From contig JAUMVT010000010.1 of assembly GCA_030529995.1 (NCBI GenBank), positions 1 to 45,593 on the forward strand: a DNA stretch of 45,593 nucleotides. The letters run 5' to 3'. A program made the position numbers and the translations under genes. This DNA comes from Clostridia bacterium. GTDB taxonomy: Bacteria > Bacillota > Clostridia > Christensenellales > Aristaeellaceae. The notes under the pieces are model-generated. The model made no database searches and had not been told where the DNA came from. It was given only the letters and a program-made list of their open reading frames with translations. Below, piece after piece: positions 30,336 to 45,593 of this stretch (positions within the stretch are counted from its first letter, which is position 1; every line of letters starts with the position of its first letter).

Positions 30336-30336
30336 A

Positions 30337-32172
30337 ATGTTTGCTGCATATGTAGATACCCATCCGCTGCATTCCCTGCTGGGGAAGGATTATCATCCTT
30401 TTCCGATGCGGCAGGAGAGAGCGGCATGGGATCACCTCCCAAAGGAGAAACGAGCGGAAATCCTTGCCTGGGCGAAAGAGTCCGGGCAAGGATTCCCTAT
30501 GGTAACGGCGACCCAGTTCCTGGCCTTCTGCCGGACGGGCGACCGGATGGTGTATGAGACGCCCTATTTTGCCAGACGAAGTCTGCTGATGGGGGCTGCC
30601 CTAGGCGAATGTCTGCTGGATGACGGCACCTATCTGGATGCGGTGATTGACGGGCTGTGGTGCATCTGTGAGGAAACCACCTGGGTGCTCAGTGCGCACA
30701 ACGGCAGTGATCATCCCGGCCGTCCTCCCATGAACGAGCGGCTTTTGCCGGATGTGACCAACCCCTATGTGGATCTGTTTGCGGCACAAACGGCGGCGAT
30801 GCTGGCAGATATTCTGTATCTGCTGGAAGACAAGCTGGATGCTGTCAGCCCCTTGATTGCCCGTAGAGTTCGGCTGGAAATTGACCGGCGAATCATTGTG
30901 CCCTTCATGCAGCATGACGACTTCTGGTGGATGGGCATGATCCGCAAGGACGTGTGCAACTGGACGCCTTGGATTCTTTCCAATGTGATTGACGTGCTGC
31001 TTCTGCTGGAGCGGGACAGCTGGCGCAAGAGCGAAGGTGTTGCCCGTGCCCTGCGCATGCTGGACAGTTACCTGGCCGTGCTGCCGGAGGACGGTGGATG
31101 CGATGAAGGCGCCGGGTACTTCAACATGGCAGGCGCAGCACTCTTTGATGCGATGGAAAGCGTGTATCAGGCAACAGACGGTCGTGTCAGCTTCTATGAG
31201 GAGCCGATGATTGCTCGCATTGCGGCTTTCCCTATGCATGCCCATATTGCGGGAGCGTACTTCATCAACTTTGCCGACTGTGATGCCAAACCTCAGCTGG
31301 ATGGACAGCGAATCGCCCTCTTCGGGCAGCGCACTCATCAAAGGAATGTGGAGCAATTCGGCTGGTGGTTGGAGGGACAGAGAAAATCTGTCCGTCCGGT
31401 GGATACCCCCCAAATGAGCCGGGTGCTGCAAAGCTTGTTTGTACAGGCGCCTGCCGGGGAAGAACCGGCAGGGGAGCCGTTTGCGCTTCTGCCCAGCCTG
31501 CAGGTTGCTGCCTGGCGTAGAGGGAGGCTTTATGCGGCCGCAAAAGGCGGTCACAATGGCGAAAGCCACAATCACAACGATGTGGGAACCTTCATTGTCT
31601 ATGTGGACGGCCTGCCGGAAATCATCGACGTGGGCAACTGCGTGTACACGGCGAAAACCTTTAGTCCCAGACGGTATGAGCTGATGAATACCCGGTCGCG
31701 GAATCATAATGTGCCGCTGATTGGCAGCAACGAGCAAACAGCAGGCAGAGAGCATGCCGCATCCGCCTTCGAAGCGGATGCGGAGGGCGTACGAATGAAC
31801 CTTGCGGGCGCTTATCCGGAGGAAGCGGGCGTGCAGTCTCTGTTCCGCAGCTTGAAGGTGACCAACGCAGGCATAACGCTGACGGACGAGGTTGAACTGA
31901 CTGCCGCCCAGACGGTGACCTTTGTTTTCATGCTCCGGCATGAGCCCCATTTGGCGGACGGACGGGCGGACTTCGGCAAGCTTCGCATGGCATACGATGT
32001 GGATTTACAGCCTTGTGTGGAAGAAATTCCTGTCACGGATGCCCGCATGGGGAAAAACTTCCCCGGCACCCTTTGGCGGCTGACGCTGACAACCTTACCG
32101 GCACGGAAACATGTGCATACCTTTCAAATACAAGTGGAGGGTTCATCTTATGGGAAATTGTGTGAAGCATAA
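30337..32172 (+). CDS. Heparinase II/III-family polysaccharide lyase
   Basis: 611 residues. The N-terminal alpha/alpha toroid (~60-330, with EGAGYFNMAG near 263) is followed by the heparinase II/III beta-sandwich, whose hallmark KGGHNGESHNHNDVGTF lies near 405-421. The family cleaves uronic-acid glycosidic bonds by beta-elimination, giving unsaturated uronate ends. No signal peptide is seen, so it should act on imported oligosaccharides. Its ATG follows the permease stop by one base without a clear ribosome site, which suggests translational coupling. Substrate (heparin-, hyaluronan-, chondroitin- or alginate-like) cannot be fixed by eye. Confidence 0.88.
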   Translation: MFAAYVDTHPLHSLLGKDYHPFPMRQERAAWDHLPKEKRAEILAWAKESGQGFPMVTATQFLAFCRTGDRMVYETPYFARRSLLMGAALGECLLDDGTYLDAVIDGLWCICEETTWVLSAHNGSDHPGRPPMNERLLPDVTNPYVDLFAAQTAAMLADILYLLEDKLDAVSPLIARRVRLEIDRRIIVPFMQHDDFWWMGMIRKDVCNWTPWILSNVIDVLLLLERDSWRKSEGVARALRMLDSYLAVLPEDGGCDEGAGYFNMAGAALFDAMESVYQATDGRVSFYEEPMIARIAAFPMHAHIAGAYFINFADCDAKPQLDGQRIALFGQRTHQRNVEQFGWWLEGQRKSVRPVDTPQMSRVLQSLFVQAPAGEEPAGEPFALLPSLQVAAWRRGRLYAAAKGGHNGESHNHNDVGTFIVYVDGLPEIIDVGNCVYTAKTFSPRRYELMNTRSRNHNVPLIGSNEQTAGREHAASAFEADAEGVRMNLAGAYPEEAGVQSLFRSLKVTNAGITLTDEVELTAAQTVTFVFMLRHEPHLADGRADFGKLRMAYDVDLQPCVEEIPVTDARMGKNFPGTLWRLTLTTLPARKHVHTFQIQVEGSSYGKLCEA

Positions 32173-33970
32173 TCCTTTGCGTACCCGGGCGGATGTGGAA
32201 AAAGCGGCGGTTCAGCTGATTGAGCCCCTGCTGCCTCTGCTCAGCCCGAACAAAGCCCGTCTGCACTTGGGCGACACAGGGGCTGTGTACCCGGATGATA
32301 TTGCCCAGATGGAGGCTTTTGCCCGTCCACTATGGGTCATTGTGCCTATGCTGGCCGGACACTGCGAAAGCGTTCAGCCCCTGTGGCAGGCTTGGCGGCA
32401 GGGTATTATTGCCGGCGTTGATCCGGAGAATCCGGAATACTGGGGTGAAGTGGTGGATTACGATCAGCGGCTGGTGGAAATGGCCGTGTTCGGCATGGGC
32501 ATGGCGCTGGCACCCAAGGAGTTCTTCTTCGATTTGCCGGAGAAGACCCAAAAGCAGCTGCACGCGTGGCTGGATCAGATCAACCACCACGACATGCCGA
32601 AGAACAACTGGACCTTCTTTCGAGTGCTGGTGAACATGGGCTTTATCGTTTGCGGCGTTCCCTATGATGAGGAGCGGATGCAGAAAGACTTTGCCATGAT
32701 TGAAGAGCACTATGAAGGAGACGGCTGGTACTTCGACTATTTCAATCAGCGGGAGTATTACACCATGTGGGCTTTCCACTTCTATGGCATGGTGTATGCG
32801 AAAGTCATGGGCGAGAGAGATCCGGAGCGCAGCCGGGCATATATTCAGCGGGGCAAGCAAATGGCATCTGACTTTGCCTGCTGGTTCGACAGTTCCTGCG
32901 AAGCGCTGGCCTATGGCAGAAGCCTGACCTATCGCTTTGCTCAGGGCGCTTTCTACGCAGCTCAGGCATTGGCGGAAGCGGAATGTGAAGCAGTCAGCTA
33001 CGGACAAATGAAGCATTTGCTGCTTGGCAATATGCGGAAGTGGTTCGGCAAGCCCATTTTCACCCGGGACGGTGTGCTGACGATTGGCTATGGTTACCCC
33101 AGTCTGCTGATGGCAGAGGGATACAATGCTCCCGGTTCTCCGTACTGGGCCATGAAGGCCTTTGCCTGTCTGGCCTTGCCGGAGGATCATCCCTTCTGGC
33201 AGGCGGAAGAGGCGGAAGTGAATACGCCTAAGGTATCCCTGCAGCCCCATGCCCGCATGCTGATTACCAGAAGCGATGATAAGAGCCATGTGATGGCCTT
33301 TGTGGCAGGCAATCGTGCTCACGAGCACAGCCATGACGAAGCCAAGTATGAAAAGTTTGTTTACTCCAGCCTGTTTGGCTTTAGCGTCAGCAAGGCGCAA
33401 AAGCTGCTGAAGGACGGCGCTTTCGATAATATGCTTGCTCTCAGCGAGGACGGAGACACCTGGCATCCCCGCTACGGCTGTGAAGCGTACGAAATCAGGG
33501 AAGACTGCGTACTTTCCACCTGGCATCCTTTTGTCGGTGTCACGGTAAAGACGGAACTGCGTCCCTATGGAGAGTGGCATGTGCGCATCCACCACATTAC
33601 CAGCGACCGGGAACTGTATGCGGCCGAAGGTGGTTATGCCATCTCTCGTGACGGCTGTGACGGCAGCGTGATTTACGGTCAGCATGCCCAAATGCCTCTG
33701 GAAGTTTGTCAAGATGGTCAGGCTGCGGTGATTGCCCCTTGGGGCATCAGTGGCGTGATGAATCTGCAGGGCTACGATGGCCAGCAGAACGTGATGCCGG
33801 AGCCCAATACCAACCTGATGGTGCCCCGCACGCTGATTCCTACCCTGACGGCAAAAATCGGGAAGGGTGAAACCGTACTGGTCAGCGCAGTATTCGGCAC
33901 AAAGACCGGTGGAGAGAAAGCCTGGAAAAATCCGCCGACGGAGGTTTTGCAATATGGAAAAATGGGTTGA
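32150..33970 (+). CDS. DUF2264 protein, putative glycoside hydrolase
   Basis: 606 residues with the DUF2264 pattern: an alpha/alpha-barrel N-terminal half (~1-370, with MPKNNWTFFRVLVNMG and YYTMWAFHFYGMVYAKV) and a beta-rich C-terminal half. As far as I recall, DUF2264 proteins include CAZy family GH154, with beta-glucuronidase activity shown for a member; treat this as a pointer. No signal peptide. It overlaps the lyase by 23 bp and has GGAGG at 32136-32140 inside it; the ATG at 32150 is preferred to the in-frame start at 32111. It would trim uronate from oligosaccharides. Confidence 0.8.
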   Translation: MGNCVKHNPLRTRADVEKAAVQLIEPLLPLLSPNKARLHLGDTGAVYPDDIAQMEAFARPLWVIVPMLAGHCESVQPLWQAWRQGIIAGVDPENPEYWGEVVDYDQRLVEMAVFGMGMALAPKEFFFDLPEKTQKQLHAWLDQINHHDMPKNNWTFFRVLVNMGFIVCGVPYDEERMQKDFAMIEEHYEGDGWYFDYFNQREYYTMWAFHFYGMVYAKVMGERDPERSRAYIQRGKQMASDFACWFDSSCEALAYGRSLTYRFAQGAFYAAQALAEAECEAVSYGQMKHLLLGNMRKWFGKPIFTRDGVLTIGYGYPSLLMAEGYNAPGSPYWAMKAFACLALPEDHPFWQAEEAEVNTPKVSLQPHARMLITRSDDKSHVMAFVAGNRAHEHSHDEAKYEKFVYSSLFGFSVSKAQKLLKDGAFDNMLALSEDGDTWHPRYGCEAYEIREDCVLSTWHPFVGVTVKTELRPYGEWHVRIHHITSDRELYAAEGGYAISRDGCDGSVIYGQHAQMPLEVCQDGQAAVIAPWGISGVMNLQGYDGQQNVMPEPNTNLMVPRTLIPTLTAKIGKGETVLVSAVFGTKTGGEKAWKNPPTEVLQYGKMG

Positions 33971-35081
33971 CGAAGCTTTTGCCCGTGCCTGCGAAAAGCT
34001 GGAGAAGGGCGCAAAGCGTGCGGCGGAACAGGGCATTATCCCGTACATGGGGCAGAAGGACGGCTATGCCCCTGCGCCTTTTGACGGCAACAGCTGGTGG
34101 ACGGGCGGATTCTGGCCGGGCATGATGTGGCAGATGTACGTGGCTACCGGCAAGGATGTTTTCAAGGATGAGGCACTTCGTGTGGAAAAGCTGCTGACGG
34201 CGGAGCTTCGTTCCTTCATGCTGCTGAATCACGACGTGGGCTTCATGTATCTGCTGTCCACCGGCGCTCATGACCGCATTTTGAAGGATGAGCAGGCTCA
34301 TGCGGATACACTCCATGCCGCTACCCTGCTGGCAGGACGGTTTAATCCGGTAGGATTCATTCGCGCCTGGCCGGGGGAGGATCGGGCAGGATATGCGATC
34401 ATCGACTGCATGATGAACCTGAACATTCTCTACTGGGCTGGGAAGCAGACGGGAGATCCCCGATTCGAAGCCATTGCCCGCATTCATGCGGATACCACCA
34501 TTCGGGAGTTCATCCGTGAGGATGGCAGCAGCAACCACATTGTTATCTTTGATCCTGCAACCGGGAAAGCGCTGGATAAACCCGGCGGACAGGGATATGC
34601 GCCTGGCTCCAGCTGGAGCCGCGGGCAGGCGTGGGCACTGTACGGGTTCACCCTGACCGGCATCAATACCGGGGACAGCAAGTATATTGACGTGGCACGC
34701 AAATGCGCAAAGTACTTTATTGCCAACATCCGTGAGGACGGTCTGACCGACTGTGACTTCCGGCAGCCCAAGGACGAGGAACGCATTGATAACATTGCCG
34801 GTGCCTGTGCTGCCTGCGGCTTGCTGGAGCTTGCCAAGGTGGTGGGCGGCGAGGAAGGAGAGACCTACCGGGCGGCGGCCATGCGGCTGCTGACGGCGCT
34901 GAACACCCTTTGCGCTGACTGGACGGACAACAACATGGGCATCCTGCAAAAGTGCACGGCCAGCTACCATAATGACGGAGCTGGCCGGCATGTGAACATC
35001 CTGTACGGGGATTACTTCTTTGTGGAAGCACTGTGCAAACTGCGGGGCACGGATGCCGGCCTGTGGATGGCCAGAAAGTGA
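33954..35081 (+). CDS. GH88 unsaturated glucuronyl hydrolase
   Basis: 375 residues, matching the ~377 of Bacillus unsaturated glucuronyl hydrolase. The two conserved acidic sites are visible: LNHDVGFMYLLS near residue 90 and IIDCMMNLNILYWAG near 148. WWTGGFWPGMMWQMY near 43 is also typical. The enzyme removes the 4,5-unsaturated uronate from the non-reducing end left by lyases, the starting compound for KduI and KduD. It overlaps the DUF2264 gene by 17 bp; the ATG at 33954 has GGAGG just upstream. Cytoplasmic. Confidence 0.93.
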   Translation: MEKWVDEAFARACEKLEKGAKRAAEQGIIPYMGQKDGYAPAPFDGNSWWTGGFWPGMMWQMYVATGKDVFKDEALRVEKLLTAELRSFMLLNHDVGFMYLLSTGAHDRILKDEQAHADTLHAATLLAGRFNPVGFIRAWPGEDRAGYAIIDCMMNLNILYWAGKQTGDPRFEAIARIHADTTIREFIREDGSSNHIVIFDPATGKALDKPGGQGYAPGSSWSRGQAWALYGFTLTGINTGDSKYIDVARKCAKYFIANIREDGLTDCDFRQPKDEERIDNIAGACAACGLLELAKVVGGEEGETYRAAAMRLLTALNTLCADWTDNNMGILQKCTASYHNDGAGRHVNILYGDYFFVEALCKLRGTDAGLWMARK

Positions 35082-35087
35082 GGCAGT

Positions 35088-35864
35088 ATGTACAGCATTG
35101 AAATTTGGCGCCAAGGCGTCATGCTTGCCCAAAGCAGCGGCACGCAAGAGGCGGCACTGCTCTACAAAGGCGTGTACGAAGAGACGGACGAAATTCGTTT
35201 TGCTTCGGAAAGCACTCATGTGCTTGTGCAGGTCGATCAGCAGGTGAAGCCTGCTCGTATGTACCTGCCGGAGAAGGCCTTTACCTACCGGATTCCCCTG
35301 CAGGGAGACGGGCTGGCGGTTTATCCGCCCCAGGCCTTTGGGGGAGACATGCACCTGATTTCTATTCGCCCGGCGACAGACAATCCTTACCGCAATTTGG
35401 CGGAAAACCCGGCAGATCAGCGGGGCGATGTAGCTGCTTATCCCCATGCAACGGCAAACGTGGAGACCAGGAATGAAAGCGGCTTTGCTGCCCGGAATGT
35501 GATTGACGGCGAGCATATTGCCTGCGGCCATGGAGAATGGCCCTTCGGCAGCTGGGGCATCGGCGCAAGAACGGATGCGGCACTGACCCTGGACTTTGGC
35601 CGGGAAGTGGAAATTGACACCCTTGTGATGTATCTGCGGGCAGATTTTCCCCATGATGCCTACTGGATCTCCGGCACGGTCACCTTGGATGACGGGTTCA
35701 CGAAGACCTTCCCGCTGGAAGGCCGGGATGGGGGACAGCCCATTGATCTGGGCAGCCACAAAACAAGGACACTACTGCTGGATCATCTGATTAAGTGCGA
35801 TAATCCTTCGGCGTTCCCGGCGCTTCGGCAGCTGGAAGTGTACGGAAAAGATATCGAAGCATAA
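35088..35864 (+). CDS. Protein with F5/8-type-C-like (discoidin) domain
   Basis: 258 residues. The N-terminal ~100 residues are beta-rich. The C-terminal part (~115-255) looks like a galactose-binding jelly roll (NVIDGEHIACGHG...SWGIGAR...LTLDFGREVEIDTLVMYLR). It has no signal peptide and no catalytic motif I can recognise. It follows GH88 by 6 nt and ends the operon, so it probably helps handle the same oligosaccharide, or is a non-classical enzyme of the cluster. Confidence 0.75.
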   Translation: MYSIEIWRQGVMLAQSSGTQEAALLYKGVYEETDEIRFASESTHVLVQVDQQVKPARMYLPEKAFTYRIPLQGDGLAVYPPQAFGGDMHLISIRPATDNPYRNLAENPADQRGDVAAYPHATANVETRNESGFAARNVIDGEHIACGHGEWPFGSWGIGARTDAALTLDFGREVEIDTLVMYLRADFPHDAYWISGTVTLDDGFTKTFPLEGRDGGQPIDLGSHKTRTLLLDHLIKCDNPSAFPALRQLEVYGKDIEA

Positions 35865-35906: not shown

Positions 35907-36539
35907 TTACTGCCAATACTTTCCGTCCAGTTCTCGGAACTGGATTGCCTCTGCCACATCCTGGGTTTCAATGTTTTCTGCTCCCCGCAAATCGGCAATG
36001 GTTCTCGCCACTTTCAGCACACGCCCATAGGCACGCATGCTCATGCCCATTCGCTCCACGGCCAGATGCAGGATCTGCGTGGCCTCATTGCTCAGTGCGC
36101 AATAGCGCTTGGAAAGTCGGGAATCCAGCTGGGCATTACAATGAATGCCATCCTTGCGGTACCGCTGCTGCTGAATCTCCCGAGCCTTGCGGACACGAGC
36201 CGCCACCACCTCGGAGGATTCTGCGCCATGGGCGGCGTTGATTTCTTTCACCGGAACGGCGTCAACTTCCACCTGGATATCAATTCGATCCAGCAGGGGG
36301 CCAGAGACCCGATCAAGATAGCGGCGAATTTCCCGCTGAGAGCAACGGCATTGCTTGGTTTTGCTGCCGAAATAGCCGCAGGGGCAAGGGTTCATGCTGG
36401 CAATGAGCATGAAACTGGATTGATACTGTGCCTGATTCTGCACCCGGGTTACGGAAACTACCCCATCCTCCAAGGGCTGGCGCAGGGCTTCCAAGGCAGG
36501 GCGGCTGAACTCAGGCAGTTCATCGAGAAACAGCACCCC
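35907..36539 (-). pseudogene. comM: comM (Mg-chelatase-like AAA+ ATPase), 3' part only, cut by element
   Basis: The last ~210 residues of a ComM/YifB protein (normally about 500). It starts in the Walker B motif (GVLFLDELPEFSR) and continues through ASMNPCPCGYFG and the arginine-finger region to the normal C-terminus DGKYWQ. Reading upstream, the comM match stops at the Gly-Val codons at 36534-36539 and a stop codon follows within five codons, so the N-terminal half, including Walker A, is missing. This is a junction with the serine-recombinase element; the other half is expected beyond the window's right end. ComM is a helicase for branch migration in natural transformation. Confidence 0.9.
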
Positions 36540-36640
36540 TATCCCACAGTCTCAAGTCTCCATGAGCCTTTTCCTCCAAACGTATCAGCTAATGAGACTT
36601 CTATCCTTACCCCACTTCGATTTTACCCCATCTGGTAATT
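36530..36640. other. Attachment-site region at comM/element junction
   Basis: Host comM sequence ends at about 36540. Immediately inside the element are AAGTCTC (36554-36560) and its inverted copy GAGACTT (36594-36600), and a direct repeat TTACCCCA (36607-36614 and 36623-36630). These are plausible recombinase-binding arms. The stretch 36640-36800 is A/T-rich with no recognisable gene. Confidence 0.6.
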
Positions 36641-36809
36641 TTCAAGCGGATGAGTTTTCCTTAAGAAAAACAGTATCACGCCTGATCGGGAAAAAGCATA
36701 GCACAGGTTTGAAAAAAATTCAATGCACAAAGTTATAACCATTCCGGCTATCAAAGCGAAAAAGAAAGATTTTACATTATTTCTTATTGCCTACGCATGA
36801 TATTTCATT

Positions 36810-36837
36810 TTGAATATCTTCCGTACAAGCCTATATA
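36810..36837 (+). promoter_or_regulatory. Promoter of first serine recombinase
   Basis: TTGAAT (36810-36815) is followed by TATATA at 36832-36837 (16 bp) or TATAAG at 36834-36839 (18 bp). The predicted mRNA has a leader of ~130 nt. Confidence 0.5.
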
Positions 36838-36853
36838 AGCGGTACAATGGACA

Positions 36854-36907
36854 GAGCACTCATGGCAAGGGTGCTCATTCTTGCTATGCGCCAAGCACAG
36901 CGCATAG
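36854..36907 (+). other. Two tandem hairpins in recombinase leader
   Basis: GAGCAC/GTGCTC (36854-36859 and 36871-36876) and the perfect 8-bp CTATGCGC/GCGCATAG (36884-36891 and 36900-36907, 8-nt loop) lie in the leader. Neither is followed by a T run, so they may be protein-binding or attenuation structures. Confidence 0.5.
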
Positions 36908-36976
36908 GGACAATTCGGCAGGGAGGAGGGTAGTCAAGCGATAACGGTTACAATTTTTTTATGAGAGAGGGTACGG

Positions 36977-38185
36977 ATGAAAAGGAAACTGGATGTCGCT
37001 CGAATAGAGCAGGCAAGAAGAATGACGGTCAAAGAAAGCACAAAGGAGGCTGAACGCCAGCAAATACACGAAACCATTGAGAAGAACAGGCGTGGTGAGC
37101 GAAAAGTCAAGGTCATCATGCCGGATAAGAAGCTCTACGCCTATCAAGACTCCAAGCGTATCCGTGTAGCTGCTTATTGCCGAGTAAGCACTGCCGAGGA
37201 AGCGCAAATGAACAGTTTCGAGATGCAAGTGCAGCATTTCGAACAGGTAATTTCTCAGAACCCTCTGTACGATAAGGTTGACATCTATGCGGATGAAGGT
37301 ATTTCAGGCACATCCATCGATAAGCGCAAGGAATTCCAGCGCATGATCGCGGATTGTAAGGCTGGTAAGATCGACCTCATCCTGACAAAGAGCATCAGCC
37401 GGTTTGGACGGAACATTGTCGATATACTCTCCACGTTGAAGCTGCTGGATGAGCTTCGGCCACCTGTAGCTGTTACCTTTGAAAGTGAAAGCATCTCTAC
37501 TGCAGATGGCAAGAATAAACTGGTCATCTCCATTCTGTCAGCACTGGCGGAACTGGAAAGCCAGCAGAAAAGCGAGGCCATCAAGCAGGGGATTCGTTAC
37601 CGGATGCAGGAGGGGCTTTACAAGTTTTCCGTGCGAAACATCATCGGATACTACCGTGATTACTCCGGGCAGATCAAGATCGAGCCTGCAGGAGCGGAAA
37701 TCGTTAAGTTCATCTATGGCAGCTTTCTGGATGGTGATTCGTGTAAGGAAATTGCGCAAAGGCTGACGGATGAAGGCGTGAGCTCCCCCATGGGATTAGA
37801 CCGCTGGCATCCGGGCACCATCAAAAGCATTCTGCGCAATGAGAAGTATTGCGGCAACGTTCTGTACCAGAAAACGTACTCTAAAAGCTACCTGACCCAT
37901 AAGACCGCAAAGAATAACTCCATCCTCCCACAATGGTTCTGGGAGGGTATCGTTCCCGCCATCATCCCTGTAGACGAATGGCAGCGAGTGCAAGAGGCGC
38001 TCGGCGCTGGTCGCCGTGGTAAGAAAAAAGCGGAGATCATCCGCAAAAGATTTGAGTTTGCCCGCGTAAAAGCCGGTGTGCTGCGCGGGTTTTACTATTT
38101 TGATCCGGACTGGCCAAAGGATGAGCGGGAACAGTTTTTCACACTCATGGACGCAACGCTGAACAGTATCAAAGAAGAGGACTAA
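36977..38185 (+). CDS. Large serine recombinase 1 (no zinc ribbon)
   Basis: 402 residues. The resolvase catalytic domain (~62-215) has the nucleophile Ser71 in YCRVST, and SRFGRN near 140. The Recombinase domain follows (~220-330). Unlike most large serine recombinases it has no CxxC zinc ribbon and no long coiled coil, and it ends soon after residue 340. It is nearest to the comM junction, so it is the first candidate for the integrase of this element. A purine-rich site (GAGAGAGG) precedes the ATG. Confidence 0.92.
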   Translation: MKRKLDVARIEQARRMTVKESTKEAERQQIHETIEKNRRGERKVKVIMPDKKLYAYQDSKRIRVAAYCRVSTAEEAQMNSFEMQVQHFEQVISQNPLYDKVDIYADEGISGTSIDKRKEFQRMIADCKAGKIDLILTKSISRFGRNIVDILSTLKLLDELRPPVAVTFESESISTADGKNKLVISILSALAELESQQKSEAIKQGIRYRMQEGLYKFSVRNIIGYYRDYSGQIKIEPAGAEIVKFIYGSFLDGDSCKEIAQRLTDEGVSSPMGLDRWHPGTIKSILRNEKYCGNVLYQKTYSKSYLTHKTAKNNSILPQWFWEGIVPAIIPVDEWQRVQEALGAGRRGKKKAEIIRKRFEFARVKAGVLRGFYYFDPDWPKDEREQFFTLMDATLNSIKEED

Positions 38186-38202
38186 GAAAGGAAGTATGCA
38201 TT

Positions 38203-38643
38203 ATGGCAACCAAGATTGATTTTTCTTCCCTGAAGCTCGAAGTGATGGACTTCAACACGATGTATTCCTGCAACGACCCTGTGATCTTCATTAACCGTGG
38301 TACGGTTACGTTTTCTCGCGGTGTGCTTGAGATGCTGAATTACCCAGCCTACGTTCAGTTCCTCCTCGACCCGAAGAACCGTGTTTTCGCTGTTCGCGCC
38401 TGCAAGAGCAATGAGACCAAGGCGAAGCCCTTCTCCAAGCCTCGTGGTGAACAAGTTTCTACGATTAGCAGTAGTATCAAGGCATTCCACTCTGCGCTTT
38501 CACGGTTAATCCCTGAGTACAATGAAAACCTGCGATACAGGGTGTGTGGCCAGACCAACGGGGATGATAAGATCCTCTACTTCTCAATGAAGGACGCGGA
38601 GGTGAAAATGTTACGTCTGAAAGACAAGGAAGATAAAGAATAA
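38203..38643 (+). CDS. Unknown protein linked to the serine recombinases
   Basis: 146 residues, basic and soluble. No family with known function is recognised. It follows recombinase 1 by 17 nt with an AAGGAAG site and is clearly cotranscribed. It has a beta-rich N-terminal half (VIFINRGTVTFSRGVLEML, LLDPKNRVFAVRAC) and a charged C-terminal tail. Its position beside an integrase and its size fit an accessory or directionality factor, but this is inference only. Confidence 0.75.
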   Translation: MATKIDFSSLKLEVMDFNTMYSCNDPVIFINRGTVTFSRGVLEMLNYPAYVQFLLDPKNRVFAVRACKSNETKAKPFSKPRGEQVSTISSSIKAFHSALSRLIPEYNENLRYRVCGQTNGDDKILYFSMKDAEVKMLRLKDKEDKE

Positions 38644-38644
38644 G

Positions 38645-38678
38645 AAAAAAGGCCGTCCGGCATTACAAACCGGGCGGC
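38645..38678 (-). terminator. Terminator of recombinases 2 and 3
   Basis: GCCGTCCGG (38652-38660) pairs with CCGGGCGGC (38670-38678, one G-U), and six A at 38645-38650 form the T run on the minus strand. Confidence 0.8.
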
Positions 38679-38692
38679 TCAGTGCTACGCGC

Positions 38693-40099
38693 CTATTTTG
38701 CTGGCTCAACAGCAGCCTTCGTGCCATCCAGCAGGTGAAAGACCAGCGTACCGTTTTTCTTGACCACCACATAATCCAATGTTTTAGCTACGATGTGCAG
38801 GTCGATTTTTGTCATCGGCTCCATTTCTGCTGTCAGCGATATAAAGCGCTGGGCATAGAAACTGATCAACGGCGAGCCTTCAGCGCTTTGCTCTGCCCAG
38901 CGGGGGAGATTTTCTTCTCGCTGTTCCAGCAGTCGGTTCCACATGGTGATGAAAGCCGCATGCAAATCCTTTTCTTTGAGGATCATGCTCCGGCATCCCG
39001 GCTTGTCATCCTTGGCAAAACGCTCAACGCAATGCCAAATCTTCACTTCGCCCGCCAGTCTGTACCATGTTCTGCGCCAGAATAGCGAACCGCACACTCC
39101 GCAAAAGACGCGGTTGGAAAACGGCTGCTCGTCTGTATATCGGCCAAGAGTGCGCAACCCATGCTTTTCCTTGAACTCCTGTCTGCGTTTCAATTCAAGC
39201 TGTGCTATTTCCCAGCGTTCTGCAAGGATGATGGCCTCGTGAGAGCCTTTCACATAATACTGTGCAACGCGCCCGTCGTTGGCAATGGTGCGGCCATTGA
39301 GAAAGTCGTCCGTAATATACTTCTGCAGCAGTGCGTCCCCCTTATACTTCTCGTTTTTCAGAATACCGTATATCGTTGAGTTTTTCCAGCGCGGCTCACC
39401 GCATACCCCCGGAATGTTGTCGCGATTCAGCCTCCCGGCGATACTGTCCGGAGAATAGCCATCGAGAAACTCATCAAAGATACGGCGAACGATAGCGGCT
39501 TGAGATTCGTTAATAATCAGCTGATCATCCTTGCCCTTGTCATAGCCCAGAAAACGATTGGTGTTGATGTGCATTTTGCCACGCTGGAAACGTGCTCGAA
39601 TACCCCAAGTGACGTTTTCAGAAATGTTCCGGCTTTCATCCTGTGCAAGGGAAGACATGATCGTCATGAGCAGCTCACCCTTACCGTCCAGCGTGAAAAT
39701 GTCCTCTTTTTCAAATAGAACGCCGATGCCCTTGTCGCGTAGAAGACGTGTATAATGCAGGCAATCGGCGGTATTTCGTGCGAAGCGTGAAATTGCCTTG
39801 GTGATGACCATGTCAATTTTACCTGCCTCGCAGTCTGCAATCATCGCCTTGAATTGCTCTCTTCGCTTGGTGTTCGTCCCTGTTATGCCTTCATCTGCGT
39901 AGATGTTCACCAGCTCGTATTCAGGGTGTGCTGCTACATAGTCGCGGTAATGGATCTGCTGGTTTTCAAAACTCTCCAGCTGATCTTCTTCAGCGGTTGA
40001 CACGCGGCAGTACACCGCCAGCCGGGTTTTCTGCTGTTTTGCTTCAGCGCGATTGGTGAGTTCCCGCCGTGCAGGGATGACCTCGATTTTCCTTGCCAT
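38693..40099 (-). CDS. Large serine recombinase 2
   Basis: 468 residues. The catalytic domain (~25-180) has Ser34 in YCRVST and SRFARN near 103. The Recombinase domain (~190-300) is followed by a zinc ribbon with CGVCG near 345 and two later Cys, and a short C-terminal coiled region. It lies 2 nt after recombinase 3, with its ribosome site inside the end of that gene, so they are cotranscribed and translationally coupled. Confidence 0.93.
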   Translation of the reverse strand: MARKIEVIPARRELTNRAEAKQQKTRLAVYCRVSTAEEDQLESFENQQIHYRDYVAAHPEYELVNIYADEGITGTNTKRREQFKAMIADCEAGKIDMVITKAISRFARNTADCLHYTRLLRDKGIGVLFEKEDIFTLDGKGELLMTIMSSLAQDESRNISENVTWGIRARFQRGKMHINTNRFLGYDKGKDDQLIINESQAAIVRRIFDEFLDGYSPDSIAGRLNRDNIPGVCGEPRWKNSTIYGILKNEKYKGDALLQKYITDDFLNGRTIANDGRVAQYYVKGSHEAIILAERWEIAQLELKRRQEFKEKHGLRTLGRYTDEQPFSNRVFCGVCGSLFWRRTWYRLAGEVKIWHCVERFAKDDKPGCRSMILKEKDLHAAFITMWNRLLEQREENLPRWAEQSAEGSPLISFYAQRFISLTAEMEPMTKIDLHIVAKTLDYVVVKKNGTLVFHLLDGTKAAVEPAK

Positions 40100-40101
40100 G
40101 G

Positions 40102-41322
40102 TTATTCTCCCTTCATGATTTCGTATTCTTCCTTGGGGTATGCCGTGAACCGTACCATACCGTTTTCATCTTCAAACCGCTGAACGACCACCGGCTCCTG
40201 CACATGCCAGCCTTCTGTTGCTTTCGCCGGTAGGAAAATGCCTTTGCAGGAGGAAGCACGCTTCTTAATGTTTGTACTGCAGACCCAGTATTCATCTCTG
40301 CCGTTATTGCACCACTTGTGATGCAAGACCGCACCGCAATGTGGGCAGTACATCATCCCGGATAATGGATAGCGACTATGGCAGGAACGTGGGCTTGCTT
40401 TCGGCGATTGCCTTTTTTTGTTTGCCCCGGCAATAGAAGCTGTCCGCGCATCCAAGACGTGCTGTACCTGTTCCCACTGGGCAGGTGATACAATCGGCTC
40501 ATGATCCTCTCTTACATACCAGCTTTGAACTTCTCCGTGGTTACAACAGGTTTTGCGGTTGGCGTCTTTGAATGTTTTCTGTAAAAGTAAATCGCCTTTG
40601 TACATCACATTGTGAAGCACATCGGCGACCTGACCGTCCGTCCACAGCTTGCCTTCAGGGGACGGAATATTCTGCTTGTTCAGTTTTGCTCGGATTTTTG
40701 AGCACCACACGCCCTGCTCCGCTAAGTCGAAGATCGTTCTGACGACGCGCGCCTGTTCTTCCTTCACCAGAATACTGCCGTCTTTCCCGGCACGGAACCC
40801 ATAGGTCTTTGCGGTTCGAGCCATCGGAATACCCTTTTCAAAACGATGTCTGCATGACATTTTGATCAGCTGGCTTCCGGAGTCGCTTTCGCCCTGTGCA
40901 AATGCAGCCTTGATGGTCAGCATCAGCTCGCCTGTCGCCGTTAGCGTATTGATTCTCTGTAGTTCAAAGTATACGCCGATGCCGAGACTTTTCAGTTCCC
41001 GCGTTGCCTTGAGCAATGTTTCCGTGTTTCTCGCAAACCGGGAAACGCTCTTCACCATGACGAGGTCAAACTTGCCTTGCCGTGCATCACGCAGCATGGC
41101 TTGAAACTGAGGGCGCTGATTGATAAAACCGCTTATGCCGTCATCCACATAGACCCCGGCAAATACCCATGCCGGGTTGGACGTAATGAGCGTAGAAAAA
41201 TGCTCTTTCTGCGCTTCAAGGGATTCTTCCAGATCTTCCGAGGAAGTTGAAACGCGCACATACGCGCATACGCGGAGCCGTTTTTCTGTCGGCTTCTTTG
41301 CCTTAATCACCTTTACCCGCAT
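40102..41322 (-). CDS. Large serine recombinase 3
   Basis: 406 residues from the ATG at 41322, which has AAAGGAG 7 nt upstream; the frame runs 13 codons further back without a better site. The catalytic Ser25 lies in YVRVST, and SRFARN near 95 is typical. The Recombinase domain is followed by a zinc ribbon (CPHC and two later Cys) near 325-350. First gene of the leftward pair with recombinase 2. Confidence 0.93.
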   Translation of the reverse strand: MRVKVIKAKKPTEKRLRVCAYVRVSTSSEDLEESLEAQKEHFSTLITSNPAWVFAGVYVDDGISGFINQRPQFQAMLRDARQGKFDLVMVKSVSRFARNTETLLKATRELKSLGIGVYFELQRINTLTATGELMLTIKAAFAQGESDSGSQLIKMSCRHRFEKGIPMARTAKTYGFRAGKDGSILVKEEQARVVRTIFDLAEQGVWCSKIRAKLNKQNIPSPEGKLWTDGQVADVLHNVMYKGDLLLQKTFKDANRKTCCNHGEVQSWYVREDHEPIVSPAQWEQVQHVLDARTASIAGANKKRQSPKASPRSCHSRYPLSGMMYCPHCGAVLHHKWCNNGRDEYWVCSTNIKKRASSCKGIFLPAKATEGWHVQEPVVVQRFEDENGMVRFTAYPKEEYEIMKGE

Positions 41323-41369
41323 ACCGTTCTCTCCTTTCCTTGAGGGTGTTATATCAATCACTCAAAAGC

Positions 41370-41420
41370 GCCGATAAGTCAAGCAATTCAAGGATATTTC
41401 TTATTGCTTGAGGTATCGGC
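41370..41420. repeat. 51-bp imperfect palindrome upstream of recombinase 3
   Basis: Outer arms GCCGATA (41370-41376) and TATCGGC (41414-41420) and inner arms CAAGCAAT (41380-41387) and ATTGCTTG (41403-41410) are perfect; the bases between the arms mismatch at two positions. It ends 48 bp before the recombinase 3 start. Its size is that of a large-serine-recombinase attachment site, but it could also be an operator or a second terminator. Confidence 0.7.
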
Positions 41421-41427
41421 AAGGGTC

Positions 41428-41459
41428 AAAAAAGAAGAGGCCGGATGGATTCCAGCCTC
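41428..41459 (-). terminator. Terminator after endolysin
   Basis: On the minus strand GAGGCTGG (41452-41459) pairs with CCGGCCTC (41437-41444, one G-U), followed by a T-rich run. It closes the phage lysis/tail transcript. Confidence 0.8.
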
Positions 41460-41466
41460 ATCAAGT

Positions 41467-42543
41467 TCATATGATTTTAGAATAGCTTCCGGACACCCAG
41501 CCCACGCGAGAGCCAATGACAATCGCATGCCAACCGTTCTGCGCGGTCGCCACCAGCGGGAAGGTGCTGCCCGGCGCAACCGCTGAAATACGCGCATACG
41601 CCGTGCCGTTGCCATAGCGGACGTTTACTTTGCCGCCTTCGGAGACAATGACCACAGCCGTACCAACCGAATCAGGTTCTTCCGGGGTAGGCTGCTCCGT
41701 CATTTCCGGCTGTCCGTCATCGTCCGCAATCGCGTCCATCAGCGCTGCGTGTGTCTTGTCGCTATACGTGCCGTCCGCTTCCAGACCGGCTTTCTTCTGG
41801 AACGCCAGCAGCGCCTTTTCCGTTTCAGCGCCAAACTCAGCATCCGCGCCATACTTGGGCAGCGTGTAGCCCAGCTGCATCAAAAGCTCCTGCATGGCTT
41901 TTACGTCGGATCCCACCATGCCCCGTTTCAGCAAACGGCTTCCCAGCGCAATTTCCGGTTCCGAACTCTCAGCAGTGGCTTCTCCGTACTGAATGAAGGG
42001 CAGCTTGTACCAGTACTTCCACGTGCGCTCGCTTACCTTCGTGCGCACACAGCCGTAATTGAAGCCGCGCCATTCTACGGCATAGCCGTCGCCGACATAA
42101 TAGCCCACATGCCCGTCTGTGTGCAGCGCAAGCCCTACGGTCTCCGGCAGCGTGTCAATGGTGCCCCAATCCATGCCCTTGGATTTCGCCCACGAGAACA
42201 TGGAGTTCGCTCCCTTGTCCGGGCAGCCGTTTGCACCGTACTTGTTGGAAACAGCGCTGTCCGTGCCGATTGCATCCAGCATGGCCTGACCTCCATCCGA
42301 CCACGCATATCCCTTTGCACCGCCGATGCAGTCGCAAACCACCTTCTTATCCCGGATGTCCTGCTTGTACCGGTTCATGCGAGACGAGGTGTAATGGGAC
42401 GGATATTGCTTGGACTTTCTGTTCAAGAGGCTGGTGGTGGCCTTGTAGCCGCAGCAGCCGTACCAATAAGGCTGGCCTACCATCTTCAGACAGTAGGCCG
42501 CGAAGTGCTCATTGGTAAAAGGAGTGGCAATTCGTTCGCTCAT
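41467..42543 (-). CDS. Phage endolysin (NlpC/P60-like cysteine peptidase, PG-binding, SH3)
   Basis: 358 residues. Residues ~1-195 form a cysteine peptidase-like domain, with Cys72 in CDCIGGAKGYA and a His in GHVGYYVG near 145. Residues ~205-270 are a PG_binding_1 domain (VGSDVKAMQELLMQLGY), then an acidic Pro linker, then an SH3-like domain (~298-358, VNVRYGNGTAYARIS). It degrades peptidoglycan for release of phage. It overlaps the holin by 4 bp (ATGA). Confidence 0.9.
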   Translation of the reverse strand: MSERIATPFTNEHFAAYCLKMVGQPYWYGCCGYKATTSLLNRKSKQYPSHYTSSRMNRYKQDIRDKKVVCDCIGGAKGYAWSDGGQAMLDAIGTDSAVSNKYGANGCPDKGANSMFSWAKSKGMDWGTIDTLPETVGLALHTDGHVGYYVGDGYAVEWRGFNYGCVRTKVSERTWKYWYKLPFIQYGEATAESSEPEIALGSRLLKRGMVGSDVKAMQELLMQLGYTLPKYGADAEFGAETEKALLAFQKKAGLEADGTYSDKTHAALMDAIADDDGQPEMTEQPTPEEPDSVGTAVVIVSEGGKVNVRYGNGTAYARISAVAPGSTFPLVATAQNGWHAIVIGSRVGWVSGSYSKII

Positions 42544-42992
42544 TCCTGCTCACCCTCCTGTGGATTGTCCTTCTTCTCATCGGCGCGCCCATGCAGCTGC
42601 GCCAGCACATCCTTCATCTTGTCGGGAATGGGCAGGCCGATGTGGGCAGCATTCTCCAGCAGAGACAGACCCTCATTGGACAGGTAGAAACAGATCACGG
42701 CGCTGCGCAGCGCGGAGCCGGTGCCCACAATGTGGATGTCCACCACGTTGGCCACGCCCACCAGCATCAGGATCAGCACCTTCTTGCAGATGCCCTTAAA
42801 GCCCACGGCGCTGGACAGCTTCTTGTCGATTACCGCGCACATCAGGCCGGTGATATAGTCCAGCACCATGAAAATGATCAGCGCAATCATCAGTCCGTCC
42901 ATGCCTCCCAAGAAATAGCCCAGCCAGCCGCCAATGGCAGCAACGGCCATCTGAATCTTCGCCCAGATGATGTCAATGGAAAAGTTTCTCAT
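42540..42992 (-). CDS. Phage holin family protein
   Basis: 150 residues from the ATG at 42992, which has AGGAGG upstream. Three to four hydrophobic segments (~12-35, 38-58, 70-95) and a charged tail match the toxin-secretion/phage lysis holin family. It makes membrane lesions through which the endolysin acts. The longer frame to 43019 lacks a good ribosome site. Confidence 0.9.
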   Translation of the reverse strand: MRNFSIDIIWAKIQMAVAAIGGWLGYFLGGMDGLMIALIIFMVLDYITGLMCAVIDKKLSSAVGFKGICKKVLILMLVGVANVVDIHIVGTGSALRSAVICFYLSNEGLSLLENAAHIGLPIPDKMKDVLAQLHGRADEKKDNPQEGEQE

Positions 42993-43021
42993 GTTCAAAA
43001 CCTCCTGTCTTGATTGCATAG

Positions 43022-43048
43022 AAAAACGACCGTCCGAAAAGACAGTCG
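43022..43048 (-). terminator. Terminator between tail and lysis genes
   Basis: On the minus strand an 8-bp stem (CGACTGTC with GACGGTCG, one G-U) with a 6-nt loop is followed by TTTTTC. The holin may then need its own start or readthrough. Confidence 0.7.
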
Positions 43049-43049
43049 A

Positions 43050-43445
43050 TCATGCTTGCTTTTGCCACCCGATGGGATAAACCTCCGGGTTCCACACACA
43101 GTGTGGCAGGCGGCAGATATATCGAGTGCCGTTGTAAGTGACCTTATCGCCTACCTGATACGCTGTGCCCGCGCTGGTGGGCTGGACATACTCCGGCCAT
43201 TCCTCCGTTTCTTCGGAGGGTGATATGCTTTGCTGCAGAGCGCGAACCGCTGCCCACAGGGCGTTGATTTCTGCTGCATAGTCATATTCAGGTGCTGCGC
43301 CTTCCTGTGCCTGCAGGGTCAATTCCTGACGTTCATCGTCTGTCAGCTTCCCCTCGATGTGATACTGGTCGATGCAGTTCAGCAGCGACTTTAAGTCGTA
43401 ATTCTTGCCTTGGATAACCTGCTCAAATACTTCTTTCAAGATCAT
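43050..43445 (-). CDS. Small phage tail-associated protein with carbohydrate-binding-like C-terminus
   Basis: 131 residues. The N-terminal half is helical. The C-terminal part (EWPEYVQPTSAGTAYQVGDKVTYNGTRYIC...WNPEVYPIGWQ) looks like a CBM5/12-type chitin/carbohydrate-binding fold common in phage tail proteins. ATG at 43445 is preferred over GTG at 43448, with AAAGGAG in front. It lies 9 nt downstream of the large tail gene. Confidence 0.75.
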   Translation of the reverse strand: MILKEVFEQVIQGKNYDLKSLLNCIDQYHIEGKLTDDERQELTLQAQEGAAPEYDYAAEINALWAAVRALQQSISPSEETEEWPEYVQPTSAGTAYQVGDKVTYNGTRYICRLPHCVWNPEVYPIGWQKQA

Positions 43446-43454
43446 CACGCTCCT

Positions 43455-45593
43455 TTAGGTTCCAATAGCGATCCAGTCAACTGCGCGGTTAGTTGAAAAA
43501 CTGCCGCCGACAACAATGCTAGCCTGTGTCGTTGTTTTGCTGTGTACCTTGATGGCACCATTATCACCCGACCAGTTGGCTGCTGTTGTGGAATACGTCA
43601 CAATCACTTTCGGCACAGCAGTAAATCCTGCGGATGCATAGCTGATGGTTACAGCACTATTGCCGTTGATGGTGGTAGATCCGGATGCAATCTTGAACGG
43701 CAACCGTGCCGATGGAATCGTTCCGGAAGTCAAATTGTCCGCATTGCTGACACCAAGGTTTGCTCGTGCGGCTTCTGCGCTGCTTGCGCCTGTGCCGCCG
43801 TTAGCCAAAGGGATGGGTGTCGCCATGCCTGCGTGAAACAGGCGGTAGGAAGCCCATGTGCCGCCCGTGCAGGTGCGCAGCAGTACGGCAAAATCCAAAC
43901 TCGCCTGATACGCCGCGTTGCGCACCTCCAGCATTCGGCGGTTGTTGCCCGTGCTGTCCTCCCACGAGGAAAAGGAGGATGCGCCTACATACGATCCTTC
44001 AAAAACCGTCCGATTGGTGGTGCTGTTGTAGGTGGGCATCAGGTACAGGGACGGATACAGGTAACCCGAAATAGCGAGGTTGCCGGTCATGGTATCTCCG
44101 GCCTTTTTGACCGCGCCCAGCTTCGTACAAGCTGCGGACGCGGTTTCAGCGCCGGTGCCGCCCTGATCTACGCCCAGCGGCTCGGAAAGCAGCAGCGGCC
44201 AGCCGAATTCCACCTTGCCCGCGTTTTCTGCGACCTTGCCAAAGGCTATGCCGGAGCCGTCTTTGTAGAAATCCATCATGACCTGCTTCGTGCCGATGGA
44301 CACCGTCTGCTCGATGTAGTAGAACACATCCTGTACGCGAATCTTGATGTCGTAGCTGCTGAGTGCATCAAAGGTCGGCGAAAGCAGAAGATTGGATTCA
44401 TCGATGGCATAATCTGTGGGTGTGAGCGTTGCTGCGGAAACCCATGACTCGGCGCTGCTGAGCCTGTAGTACACCGTGCAGGACAGCGTATTCTTGCCGC
44501 CCACGGATGAGGTGCTTGCCTTTGCGGAGATCCGCACCTTCGTACCATCTGTCTGGGCAGCCGTGCCGTCCTCATTGCAGCGCTCGGCGGTAAACTGGGA
44601 AAGCGACGGCGGCGAGTAATCCAGCACGGTAATTGTTTGAGTGGTGCTGGCTGTGCGGCCACGAGAGTCGGTGACGGTTACGGTCAACGTAAGCGTACCT
44701 GCCGTGTTCAGCGTATTGGTGGTAAAGGACGAACCAGAATAGGTCACGCTGTCGATGCTGGTGCGATAGGCTGAAATGCTGCTGCCCTGCGCGCCAGTTG
44801 CCGTGATGCTGACCGACAGCTTGCTTCGCGTCCGCACATAGCCGCCGAAGCGGTCGGCAATGCCGGAAGTCGCTTCAGAAAACGCCACATTGGAAATAGA
44901 CGGCACAACGGACGCAGGCACCGTCAGCTGAAAAGCACAGGTATTTGTTGAAACGAGATTGCCGTTGACATAGGTGTCGCACAGAATCGTGCCCCAGCCG
45001 GAGGTCGCGTTCGGGATCTGTTCGGCCAGTGAAACGGGCGGCGTCCACGTGCAGGAGGCGGTTACGCCTGTGGCAATCGTTCCGTTTGCCGAAAAGAAGC
45101 TGTAGCGAATGGTGTGCGTGGCGATACTGCTCTGCCGGTTCGTATAGATCGTGACCGCCGTGCCCATTTCAAAAGAAGTCTTGGAAAGACTGGGTTTAGA
45201 AGCAGCCTCTTCATACGTCACCGTGATAGTGCATTCCGACCATTGCAGGTAGTTTGTAGAATATCCTTGCGAGCTCTTCACTGGGCTGGGATTGTACAGG
45301 CAGATGGTATTGTTGCCTTCCGCAATGTACGCCGCCAGATTGTTCAGCAGATCGCCGCTGAGCGTATAGGTGCTGGTATTTCCGTAGAACGCACCGGTGA
45401 ATGTGCCCAGTGCGTCGCCGCAATAGCCGAGACCCGTAATGCCCGACTGGGACGCAGACTGGTAATTGGCCTTTCGGACATACACGGTTTTCGTGTGCCC
45501 GGTGCCGTAGCCCGCCTGCGCCGCCACAACGCGCAGGGAAATCCCCGTGATGACCTTGCCGCTCAGCGCCATGCCCGCGAAATGCACGATGCC
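43455..45593 (-). CDS. Phage minor tail protein (DUF859-like), 5' end outside window
   Basis: About 712 residues visible, open at the window's right edge. The long middle part (~110-440) is made of Ser/Thr-rich immunoglobulin-like repeats as in siphovirus minor tail proteins of the DUF859 type. The C-terminal part has the tail-fibre motif GGTGA...NLG twice (DQGGTGAETA and LANGGTGASSAEAARANLG). It probably serves in host attachment. The visible start GTG at 45587 has open frame before it, so it is partial. Confidence 0.85.
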   Translation of the reverse strand, partial: GIVHFAGMALSGKVITGISLRVVAAQAGYGTGHTKTVYVRKANYQSASQSGITGLGYCGDALGTFTGAFYGNTSTYTLSGDLLNNLAAYIAEGNNTICLYNPSPVKSSQGYSTNYLQWSECTITVTYEEAASKPSLSKTSFEMGTAVTIYTNRQSSIATHTIRYSFFSANGTIATGVTASCTWTPPVSLAEQIPNATSGWGTILCDTYVNGNLVSTNTCAFQLTVPASVVPSISNVAFSEATSGIADRFGGYVRTRSKLSVSITATGAQGSSISAYRTSIDSVTYSGSSFTTNTLNTAGTLTLTVTVTDSRGRTASTTQTITVLDYSPPSLSQFTAERCNEDGTAAQTDGTKVRISAKASTSSVGGKNTLSCTVYYRLSSAESWVSAATLTPTDYAIDESNLLLSPTFDALSSYDIKIRVQDVFYYIEQTVSIGTKQVMMDFYKDGSGIAFGKVAENAGKVEFGWPLLLSEPLGVDQGGTGAETASAACTKLGAVKKAGDTMTGNLAISGYLYPSLYLMPTYNSTTNRTVFEGSYVGASSFSSWEDSTGNNRRMLEVRNAAYQASLDFAVLLRTCTGGTWASYRLFHAGMATPIPLANGGTGASSAEAARANLGVSNADNLTSGTIPSARLPFKIASGSTTINGNSAVTISYASAGFTAVPKVIVTYSTTAANWSGDNGAIKVHSKTTTQASIVVGGSFSTNRAVDWIAIGT

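What the first reader, a model, noticed from the sequence alone, without database searches (positions are those of the whole stretch)
35907..36640. Element inserted in comM at the Walker B motif
The comM match ends abruptly at Gly-Val before LFLDE, and the next gene-sized feature is a serine recombinase, followed by more recombinases and phage genes. This is one end of an integrated element, and the host ComM is disrupted. comM is also the AbaR island site in Acinetobacter (established), but there a Tn7-like system is used. Use of the same gene by a serine recombinase element of Clostridia would be a parallel case. If excision restores comM, it could switch transformation or branch-migration ability.
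Basis: partly seen in the sequence, partly recalled or inferred. Interest (0 to 1): 0.75.

Follow-up and report, generated by a model that had tools for sequence, protein, structure and literature searches.

The report
Three-recombinase prophage splitting bacterial comM gene
A bacterial virus has inserted itself into the middle of the bacterial gene comM, which is linked to DNA uptake and recombination, using a set of three related cut-and-join enzymes; this gene is already a known target of such viruses, but the three-enzyme set at this exact spot and the small unnamed protein that travels with it are less familiar.

Summary
Window 35907-36539 (-) is the 3' part of comM, cut at the Gly-Val codons before LFLDE (Walker B); to its right lies one end of a prophage. 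The 5' part is on another contig (G000:C43), cut at the same codon and followed by 53 foreign bases. The parts tile the ComM family model and, joined in a script, give one open frame. Intact relatives exist.

The element carries three serine recombinases and a 146-residue protein of no known family. Ten further loci (eight further element arms) are cut at the same codon; of eight loci with enough flank, ours included, 6 of 8 carry the same tandem recombinase pair. That pair forms clades of its own; the third recombinase with the small protein does not follow the target. Streptococcal phages agree: the latter unit is 98-99% identical in comEC- and rum-targeting phages while the tandem pair differs.

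comM as serine-recombinase target is published (12.4% of site-specific integrases; Wolbachia phage WO), as are three-recombinase prophages (phi1207.3 in comEC). I call it a new variant of a known kind. That excision switches comM is untested.

The parts
35907..36539 (-). comM 3' part (from the Gly codon of GVLFLDE to the stop)
   Evidence: TIGR00368 298-499, Mg_chelatase 109-206, Mg_chelatase_C; junction comparison
36538..36539 (-). inferred 2-base crossover core GG (within GGNGT, seen at both ends)
   Evidence: L233 and L236 share a 45-base element arm but differ in the third base of the Gly codon, so that base is taken as host DNA; inference
36540..45593 (.). element DNA (prophage end), runs off the contig end
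   Evidence: contig C51 is 45593 long; phage families
36977..38185 (+). serine recombinase R1 (E type), 402 aa, Resolvase + Recombinase, no Zn-ribbon hit
   Evidence: E clade
38203..38643 (+). small protein ORF146, found beside E-type recombinases, no known family
   Evidence: no hit in Pfam, PHROGs, NCBIfam at 0.001, only weak scattered Pfam matches, no credible PDB match; relatives beside E recombinases; relative of phi1207.3 Orf3
38693..40099 (-). serine recombinase R2 (M type), 468 aa, with Zn ribbon
   Evidence: M clade of comM elements
40102..41361 (-). serine recombinase R3 (I type), 419 aa, with Zn ribbon
   Evidence: I clade of comM elements
41467..42543 (-). endolysin-like, PG_binding_1
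42540..43019 (-). holin (Phage_holin_4_1)
43050..43448 (-). protein with CBM_5_12 module, weak phage family match
43455..45593 (-). tail protein (DUF859 / phrog_372), reaches the contig end
   Evidence: window 42584-45593 lies in an 85.5% identical match to PV036454.1

Best explanation
A temperate phage with a three-recombinase module integrated into comM at the Gly-Val codons just before the Walker B strand, by recombination over a 2-base core (GG). Shown by sequence: the split, both halves, the module, and repeated use of the same codon by elements with related modules. Inferred: the tandem pair R3-R2 chooses the comM site and does the integration, while R1 with ORF146 is an exchangeable helper that does not set the target, perhaps for excision or its control. 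Integration leaves two open comM fragments, neither with a whole AAA+ domain, so ComM should be off in the lysogen.
For: 5' half in G000:C43, cut at the same codon and followed by 53 foreign bases. The halves tile TIGR00368 (8-299 and 298-499); joined in a script they give one 510-codon frame, 74.8% identical over 1532 nt to the intact gene of G216. Eleven loci, ours included, with nine distinct element arms break at the same codon (G192 dropped); both halves were found in 4 genomes: ours, G188, G114, G115. The R3-R2 pair is beside comM in 6 of 8 such loci with at least 3 kb of element flank, 6 of 7 without the duplicate L238. comM-associated I and M rows each form one clade (SH-aLRT 100 and 99, 100 and 100), while our R1 lies outside the other comM E rows. 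phiNJ3 (rum) against phi-SsuHCJ31 and phi1207.3 (both comEC): E 98.6-99.2%, small protein 97.8-99.3%, but I 36-37% and M 47-49%. No comM in the fetched flanks of 15 R1-relative loci (0 of 15).
Against: L236 and its duplicate L238 are cut at the comM codon with E+ORF146 but no R3-R2 within 8 kb. G188 has the pair but no E type on that side, nor in about 11.5 kb of element at its 5' half. Use of comM is not confined to our pair's clade: 80 R2-relative viral loci and two phage stretches show no comM in their fetched flanks (0 of 82), but one of those contigs (L162, a sister-type pair) has comM cut at another codon (site B) at its far end, beside a further recombinase (L237), and L228 has a tandem pair about 7 kb from a comM piece cut at site B. 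Our two contigs do not overlap, so the join rests on tiling and single copy; neighbour synteny gave no support. Clade membership is correlation; no recombination was measured. The assembly is a 102-contig draft.
Confidence: 0.75

Rival explanations
1. R1, the recombinase next to the junction, is by itself the comM integrase, and R2/R3 do something else.
For: R1 is nearest to the junction; in L236/L238 an E+ORF146 unit sits at the comM codon with no R3-R2 within 8 kb; E+ORF146 occurs without a tandem pair in fetched DNA, e.g. beside a type III restriction system in L061.
Against: R1's close relatives (57-67% identity) lie in 15 loci with no comM in the fetched flanks; our R1 is not in the clade of the other comM E rows; in streptococcal phages nearly the same E goes with two different targets; G188 has the pair beside comM without an E type.
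Confidence: 0.15
2. Regulated switch: the prophage leaves comM under some condition and restores it, as in active lysogeny (recalled from Listeria comK).
For: Both halves are open and restore one frame when joined in a script; C43 breaks only 53 bases inside the element, which could reflect alternative states (inference).
Against: No excised or circular junction seen; the C43 end string occurs once in the assembly; contig breaks have many causes; need for ComM in this host is unknown; a RadA-like gene is intact (named by its ChlI-domain match and by eye).
Confidence: 0.08
3. Assembly or binning artefact: the halves belong to different strains, or the junction is chimeric.
For: Draft assembly, halves on separate contigs; G192 looked split but was a 141-base contig overlap.
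Against: No overlap between our two contigs; both halves are equally close to the same relative, G216 (82-84%); the same codon is cut in ten further loci with eight further arms.
Confidence: 0.05
4. The 209-residue gene is a stand-alone short ComM, not a split one.
For: It is an open frame with a possible GTG start.
Against: It starts inside the AAA+ fold at Walker B, without Walker A; a 5' part exists in the same assembly; intact relatives have frames of about 510-590 residues.
Confidence: 0.02

Closest known systems
phi1207.3 (Tn1207.3) of Streptococcus pyogenes, in comEC
   Same: Prophage with three serine recombinases; holin and amidase followed by two tandem recombinases (Orf56, Orf57); the third, Orf2, has no Zn ribbon in the paper's table and is followed by Orf3, a relative of ORF146 (32%); 2-base target (GA) inside a competence gene.
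   Different: Target comEC, not comM. Orf2+Orf3 lie at the opposite end of the prophage from the tandem pair; here R1+ORF146 lie on the same side as the pair, inverted. Conjugal transfer not testable here.
Triplets of serine integrases in streptococcal ICEs (Ambroset et al. 2016, PMC4701971)
   Same: Three serine recombinases at one end, disruption of the target gene, very short repeats of 2-8 bp (passages).
   Different: Targets there are mutT, traG and hsdM; all three genes there point the same way relative to the target, here R1 is inverted; those are ICEs, this is a phage.
Large serine recombinases that target the magnesium chelatase gene (Durrant et al. 2022, PMC10083194); sr1WO prophages of Wolbachia (PMC9203015)
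   Same: Same target gene family, same recombinase superfamily (passages).
   Different: The passages seen do not mention three-recombinase modules; the codon used there was not compared.
Ca. Heliusvirales gut phages (PV036445.1, PV036427.1, PV036454.1)
   Same: Tail region 85.5% identical to PV036454.1; PV036445.1 has the same module order; PV036445.1 and PV036427.1 carry 5' comM cut at the same codon.
   Different: Our phage is incomplete and membership by marker genes was not tested. PV036454.1 has recombinases of another clade.
AbaR islands in comM of Acinetobacter (recalled)
   Same: Same target gene.
   Different: Tn7-like transposition there (recalled); serine recombinases at this end.

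Membership tests
Three-recombinase (triplet) serine integrase modules | Three Resolvase+Recombinase proteins clustered at an element end | tested here: met
Three-recombinase (triplet) serine integrase modules | Recombinases cluster by position (external, middle, internal) | tested here: met
   I and M rows of comM elements form one clade each, E rows lie in a third larger clade but split in two within it; phi1207.3 Orf2 joins the E clade, its Orf56 has a long branch and stays unplaced; streptococcal ICE triplets themselves were not in the tree
Three-recombinase (triplet) serine integrase modules | All three genes in one orientation relative to the target | tested here: not met
   R1 is opposite to R2/R3 here, in L192 and in PV036445; all alike in L195, L233 and L243
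Three-recombinase (triplet) serine integrase modules | 2-8 base direct repeat at the ends | tested here: met
   GG core inferred, GGNGT at both ends
phi1207.3-type prophages | Holin and amidase/endolysin followed by two tandem recombinases, plus an Orf2+Orf3-like pair | tested here: met
phi1207.3-type prophages | Orf2+Orf3 pair at the opposite prophage end from the tandem pair | tested here: not met
   window 36977-38643 lies between comM 3' and R2
phi1207.3-type prophages | Conjugal or phage transfer | not testable with these tools
   needs experiment
Ca. Heliusvirales | Shared marker genes of the proposed order | not tested
   only tail-region DNA similarity to one member
Serine-recombinase elements targeting magnesium chelatase (comM) | Element with serine recombinase inside this gene | tested here: met
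AbaR-type Tn7-like islands | Tn7-like transposition genes at the end | tested here: not met
   no such family among the eight element genes of the window; the rest of the element is not in the window
Active lysogeny (gene-restoring prophage excision) | Regulated excision that restores the gene without lysis | not testable with these tools
   frame would be restored; no excision data

The most novel reading that the evidence does not exclude
The E recombinase plus its unnamed small protein is a separable helper unit, with the small protein acting as directionality factor (or obligate partner) of a three-recombinase system, shared by phages that use different target genes, among them the competence genes comM (here) and comEC (streptococci). 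Combined with restoration of comM on excision, it would give a reversible control of ComM.
Probability: 0.2. Interest if true: 0.7.

Novelty: new variant of a known kind. Interest (0 to 1): 0.45.

Why it matters
It ties a set of phages from several hosts to one codon of comM and gives comparisons that split a three-recombinase module into a target-following pair and a target-independent unit. Directionality factors of serine integrases are hard to recognise by sequence (recalled, general knowledge); ORF146 is a concrete, testable candidate. It also adds a second competence gene, after comEC, to the targets of this kind of module.

Tried and rejected
Rejected: comM as a new kind of serine-recombinase target (published). 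G192 as a further split genome (141-base contig overlap). L234 and L189 as site-A junctions (comM-like sequence at a contig start). L201 and L215 (breaks at residues 315 and 311) are not counted. GT as core (L233 against L236). Neighbour synteny with G216, G208 and G128 gave comM itself and two weak (29%) transporter-like matches in G128. The C43 end string was found only at itself. R3 in viral contigs by peptide pattern gave nothing. R3 in 391 genomes of the class (E limit 1e-60) gave nothing above 45% identity besides our own. Structure prediction of ORF146 was not available; its profile against PDB gave no credible match. A claim that only our type of pair uses comM was dropped after (L162/L237 and L228).

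Tree choices: rows under 290 aa were left out of both trees; I also dropped long-branch rows (L210, L219, L221, L231, L288, L068_14993). PV036448 (L251) is counted in the comM groups only because its module nearly equals that of PV036445; no comM was seen in its own record. L069 was in the E group without comM and was left out of that group. Both trees used the quick method with SH-aLRT support only.

Full report
1. Observation. Window 35907-36536 (-) codes for 209 residues that match ComM (TIGR00368) positions 298-499 of 499. The comM reading takes in one more codon, Gly 36537-36539; beyond it the DNA is unrelated. LFLDE is the Walker B strand (established knowledge of AAA+ proteins). Next come R1, a serine recombinase (36977-38185 +), ORF146 (38203-38643 +), R2 and R3 (38693-40099 and 40102-41361, both -), endolysin, holin and tail genes. 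Contig C51 equals the window and ends in the tail gene.

2. The other half. In the same assembly (102 contigs, 92% complete) one other comM piece was found, on C43. It matches TIGR00368 8-299, reads ...GEVSLSHNGV and then runs into 53 foreign bases at the contig end. Joined in a script at GG, the halves give one 510-codon frame with 74.8% identity over 1532 nt to the intact gene of G216. Of 30 relatives held as best-scoring loci, the motif search printed 29, all reading through the site; these were the top matches, not a random sample. The two contigs do not overlap, so the link is by tiling; neighbour genes of relatives did not help.

3. Same codon elsewhere. In the host family 249 of 308 genomes have the ComM C-terminal domain. 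From the listed part of that table I fetched 18 with short or odd frames. Break positions: 4 of 18 at our codon, site A (G114, G115, G068 and a second copy in G037); 5 of 18 near MNPCPCG, site B (G138, G136, G297, and at contig ends G116 and G173); 1 of 18 (G192) an assembly overlap; 8 of 18 other positions or contig ends. G188 came in through its recombinases. Among 62 viral contigs or loci with a comM piece, 6 of 62 break at residue 308/309 of the reference (L192, L195, L233, L236, L238, L243; L238 duplicates L236), and 16 of 62 have a 3' break in residues 345-366, the range of site B. In all, eleven distinct loci including ours, with nine distinct element arms, break at site A on the 3' side. 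5' halves cut there were seen in ours, G188, G114, G115 and two Evtepia phage records; in the last five the element supplies a stop codon right after Gly-Val. L233 and L236 share a 45-base arm but have GGA against GGT, so the third base is taken as host DNA and the core as GG rather than GT (inference).

4. The module. R1 has no Zn-ribbon hit; R2 and R3 have one. Of 8 site-A loci with at least 3 kb of element on the 3' side (ours, G188, L192, L195, L233, L236, L238, L243), 6 of 8 have the R3-R2 pair next to comM and 7 of 8 have an R1-type gene with an ORF146 relative. The exceptions: L236/L238 have no pair within 8 kb; G188 has no R1 type on that side, nor in about 11.5 kb of element at its 5' half. 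Evtepia phage PV036445 has the same order, and its record holds a 5' comM half cut at the same codon. Of 28 loci that I grouped as site B or near it, 10 have a single distant recombinase, 15 none in the fetched DNA, and 3 have recombinases closer to our type: L228 (a tandem pair about 7 kb from comM), L232 (a fragment) and L237. L237 is the far end of the contig of L162, which bears a tandem pair of the sister type, so one element of that type sits at site B with a third recombinase at its other end. Seven of the distant single ones were in the tree and fall outside the I, M and E clades.

5. Which part follows the target? In a tree of 62 recombinases the comM I rows and the comM M rows each form one clade (SH-aLRT 100 and 99), with tandem pairs of other viral contigs (L101-L108) as sisters. 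Our R1 is in another 10-row E clade, with L069 and eight rows without comM. A second tree of 58 rows with phi1207.3 agrees. R1 relatives at 57-67% lie in 15 loci, 0 of 15 with comM in the fetched flanks. The fetched flanks of 80 R2-relative viral loci and two phage stretches have no comM (0 of 82), yet the contig of one (L162) has comM at site B farther off, as told above; flanks limit this count. A natural comparison: phiNJ3 (rum, as annotated in its record) against phi-SsuHCJ31 and phi1207.3 (comEC) has E 98.6-99.2% and small protein 97.8-99.3% identical, but I 36-37% and M 47-49%. So the tandem pair follows the target site and E plus the small protein do not. This is correlation, not an assay.

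6. ORF146. No family in Pfam, PHROGs or NCBIfam, only weak scattered Pfam matches among 16 relatives, no credible PDB match. 24 of 308 family genomes have a relative at E <= 1e-8, and 24 of 50,697 phage records at E <= 1e-3, among them phi1207.3 Orf3, directly after recombinase Orf2. Its function is unknown; directionality factor or partner of E is my proposal.

7. What is known. comM as serine-recombinase target: Durrant 2022 (PMC10083194; passages only) and phage WO (PMC9203015; passages). Mobile elements in comM of several Proteobacteria: Croucher 2016 (PMC4774983; passages). Triplets in ICEs: Ambroset 2016 (PMC4701971; passages). phi1207.3 with three recombinases at a GA dinucleotide in comEC: PMC4260502 (passages). 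Heliusviridae: PMC9226167 (passages; zero occurrences of recombinase, integras or invertase). My ten searches (listings, two of them capped at 20 of 162 and 20 of 98 papers) showed no paper that joins a three-recombinase module with comM; supplements and most subscription journals could not be searched.

8. Verdict. A well-supported insertion and a new variant of a known kind: a phi1207.3-like three-recombinase prophage using comM. Two features of the known kinds were tested and not met (one orientation of all three genes; E pair at the opposite end), so I call it similar in working rather than a plain member. The switch idea remains open.

Noticed in passing
L248 (PP197248.1) 15523-16110: Acetoanaerobium phage carries its own internal comM piece (AAA+ part from about residue 199 to MNPCPC) directly beside its serine recombinase; after integration at site B it could fuse with the host 3' part.
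   Followed up: partly
L209, L210, L214, L217, L219, L223 (viral loci): A second comM hot spot at the MNPCPCG motif (site B), often with a single serine recombinase of a different lineage.
   Followed up: partly
L162 and L237 (both IMGVR_UViG_3300010279_000477): Tandem recombinase pair of the sister type at one end and a third recombinase beside comM cut at site B at the other: a phi1207.3-like layout at another comM codon.
   Followed up: partly
L184, L186, L187, L188 (residues 222-225); L185, L193, L221, L222, L231 (residues 281-290): Further comM break points just before Walker A and near residue 285, which suggests several insertion points in conserved AAA+ motifs.
   Followed up: no
L061 3479-9655: R1-type recombinase plus ORF146 relative without a tandem pair, beside a type III restriction-modification system, with an RNase R gene farther on; similar neighbours in some of L056-L060. 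Perhaps an autonomous island integrase.
   Followed up: partly
L356, L359, L357 (streptococcal phage ends): Cargo genes (macrolide efflux, tagatose operon) follow the E plus small-protein pair, as if the pair marks a cargo slot.
   Followed up: no
G000:C62:33000-36615 (L288): A second tandem array of three serine recombinases in the same genome, about 1.3 kb from a radA-like gene; its target was not determined.
   Followed up: no
L047 (G014:C10): comM interrupted near residue 224 by about 1.65 kb with both parts on one contig, a different and shorter insertion.
   Followed up: no
L246 5659-7883 (PV036445.1): C5 cytosine methylase and SacI-like restriction enzyme genes next to the comM 5' junction of the Evtepia prophage.
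   Followed up: no
window 29466-35864: Cluster of large same-strand genes next to comM that looks like sugar uptake and polysaccharide breakdown (by eye only).
   Followed up: no
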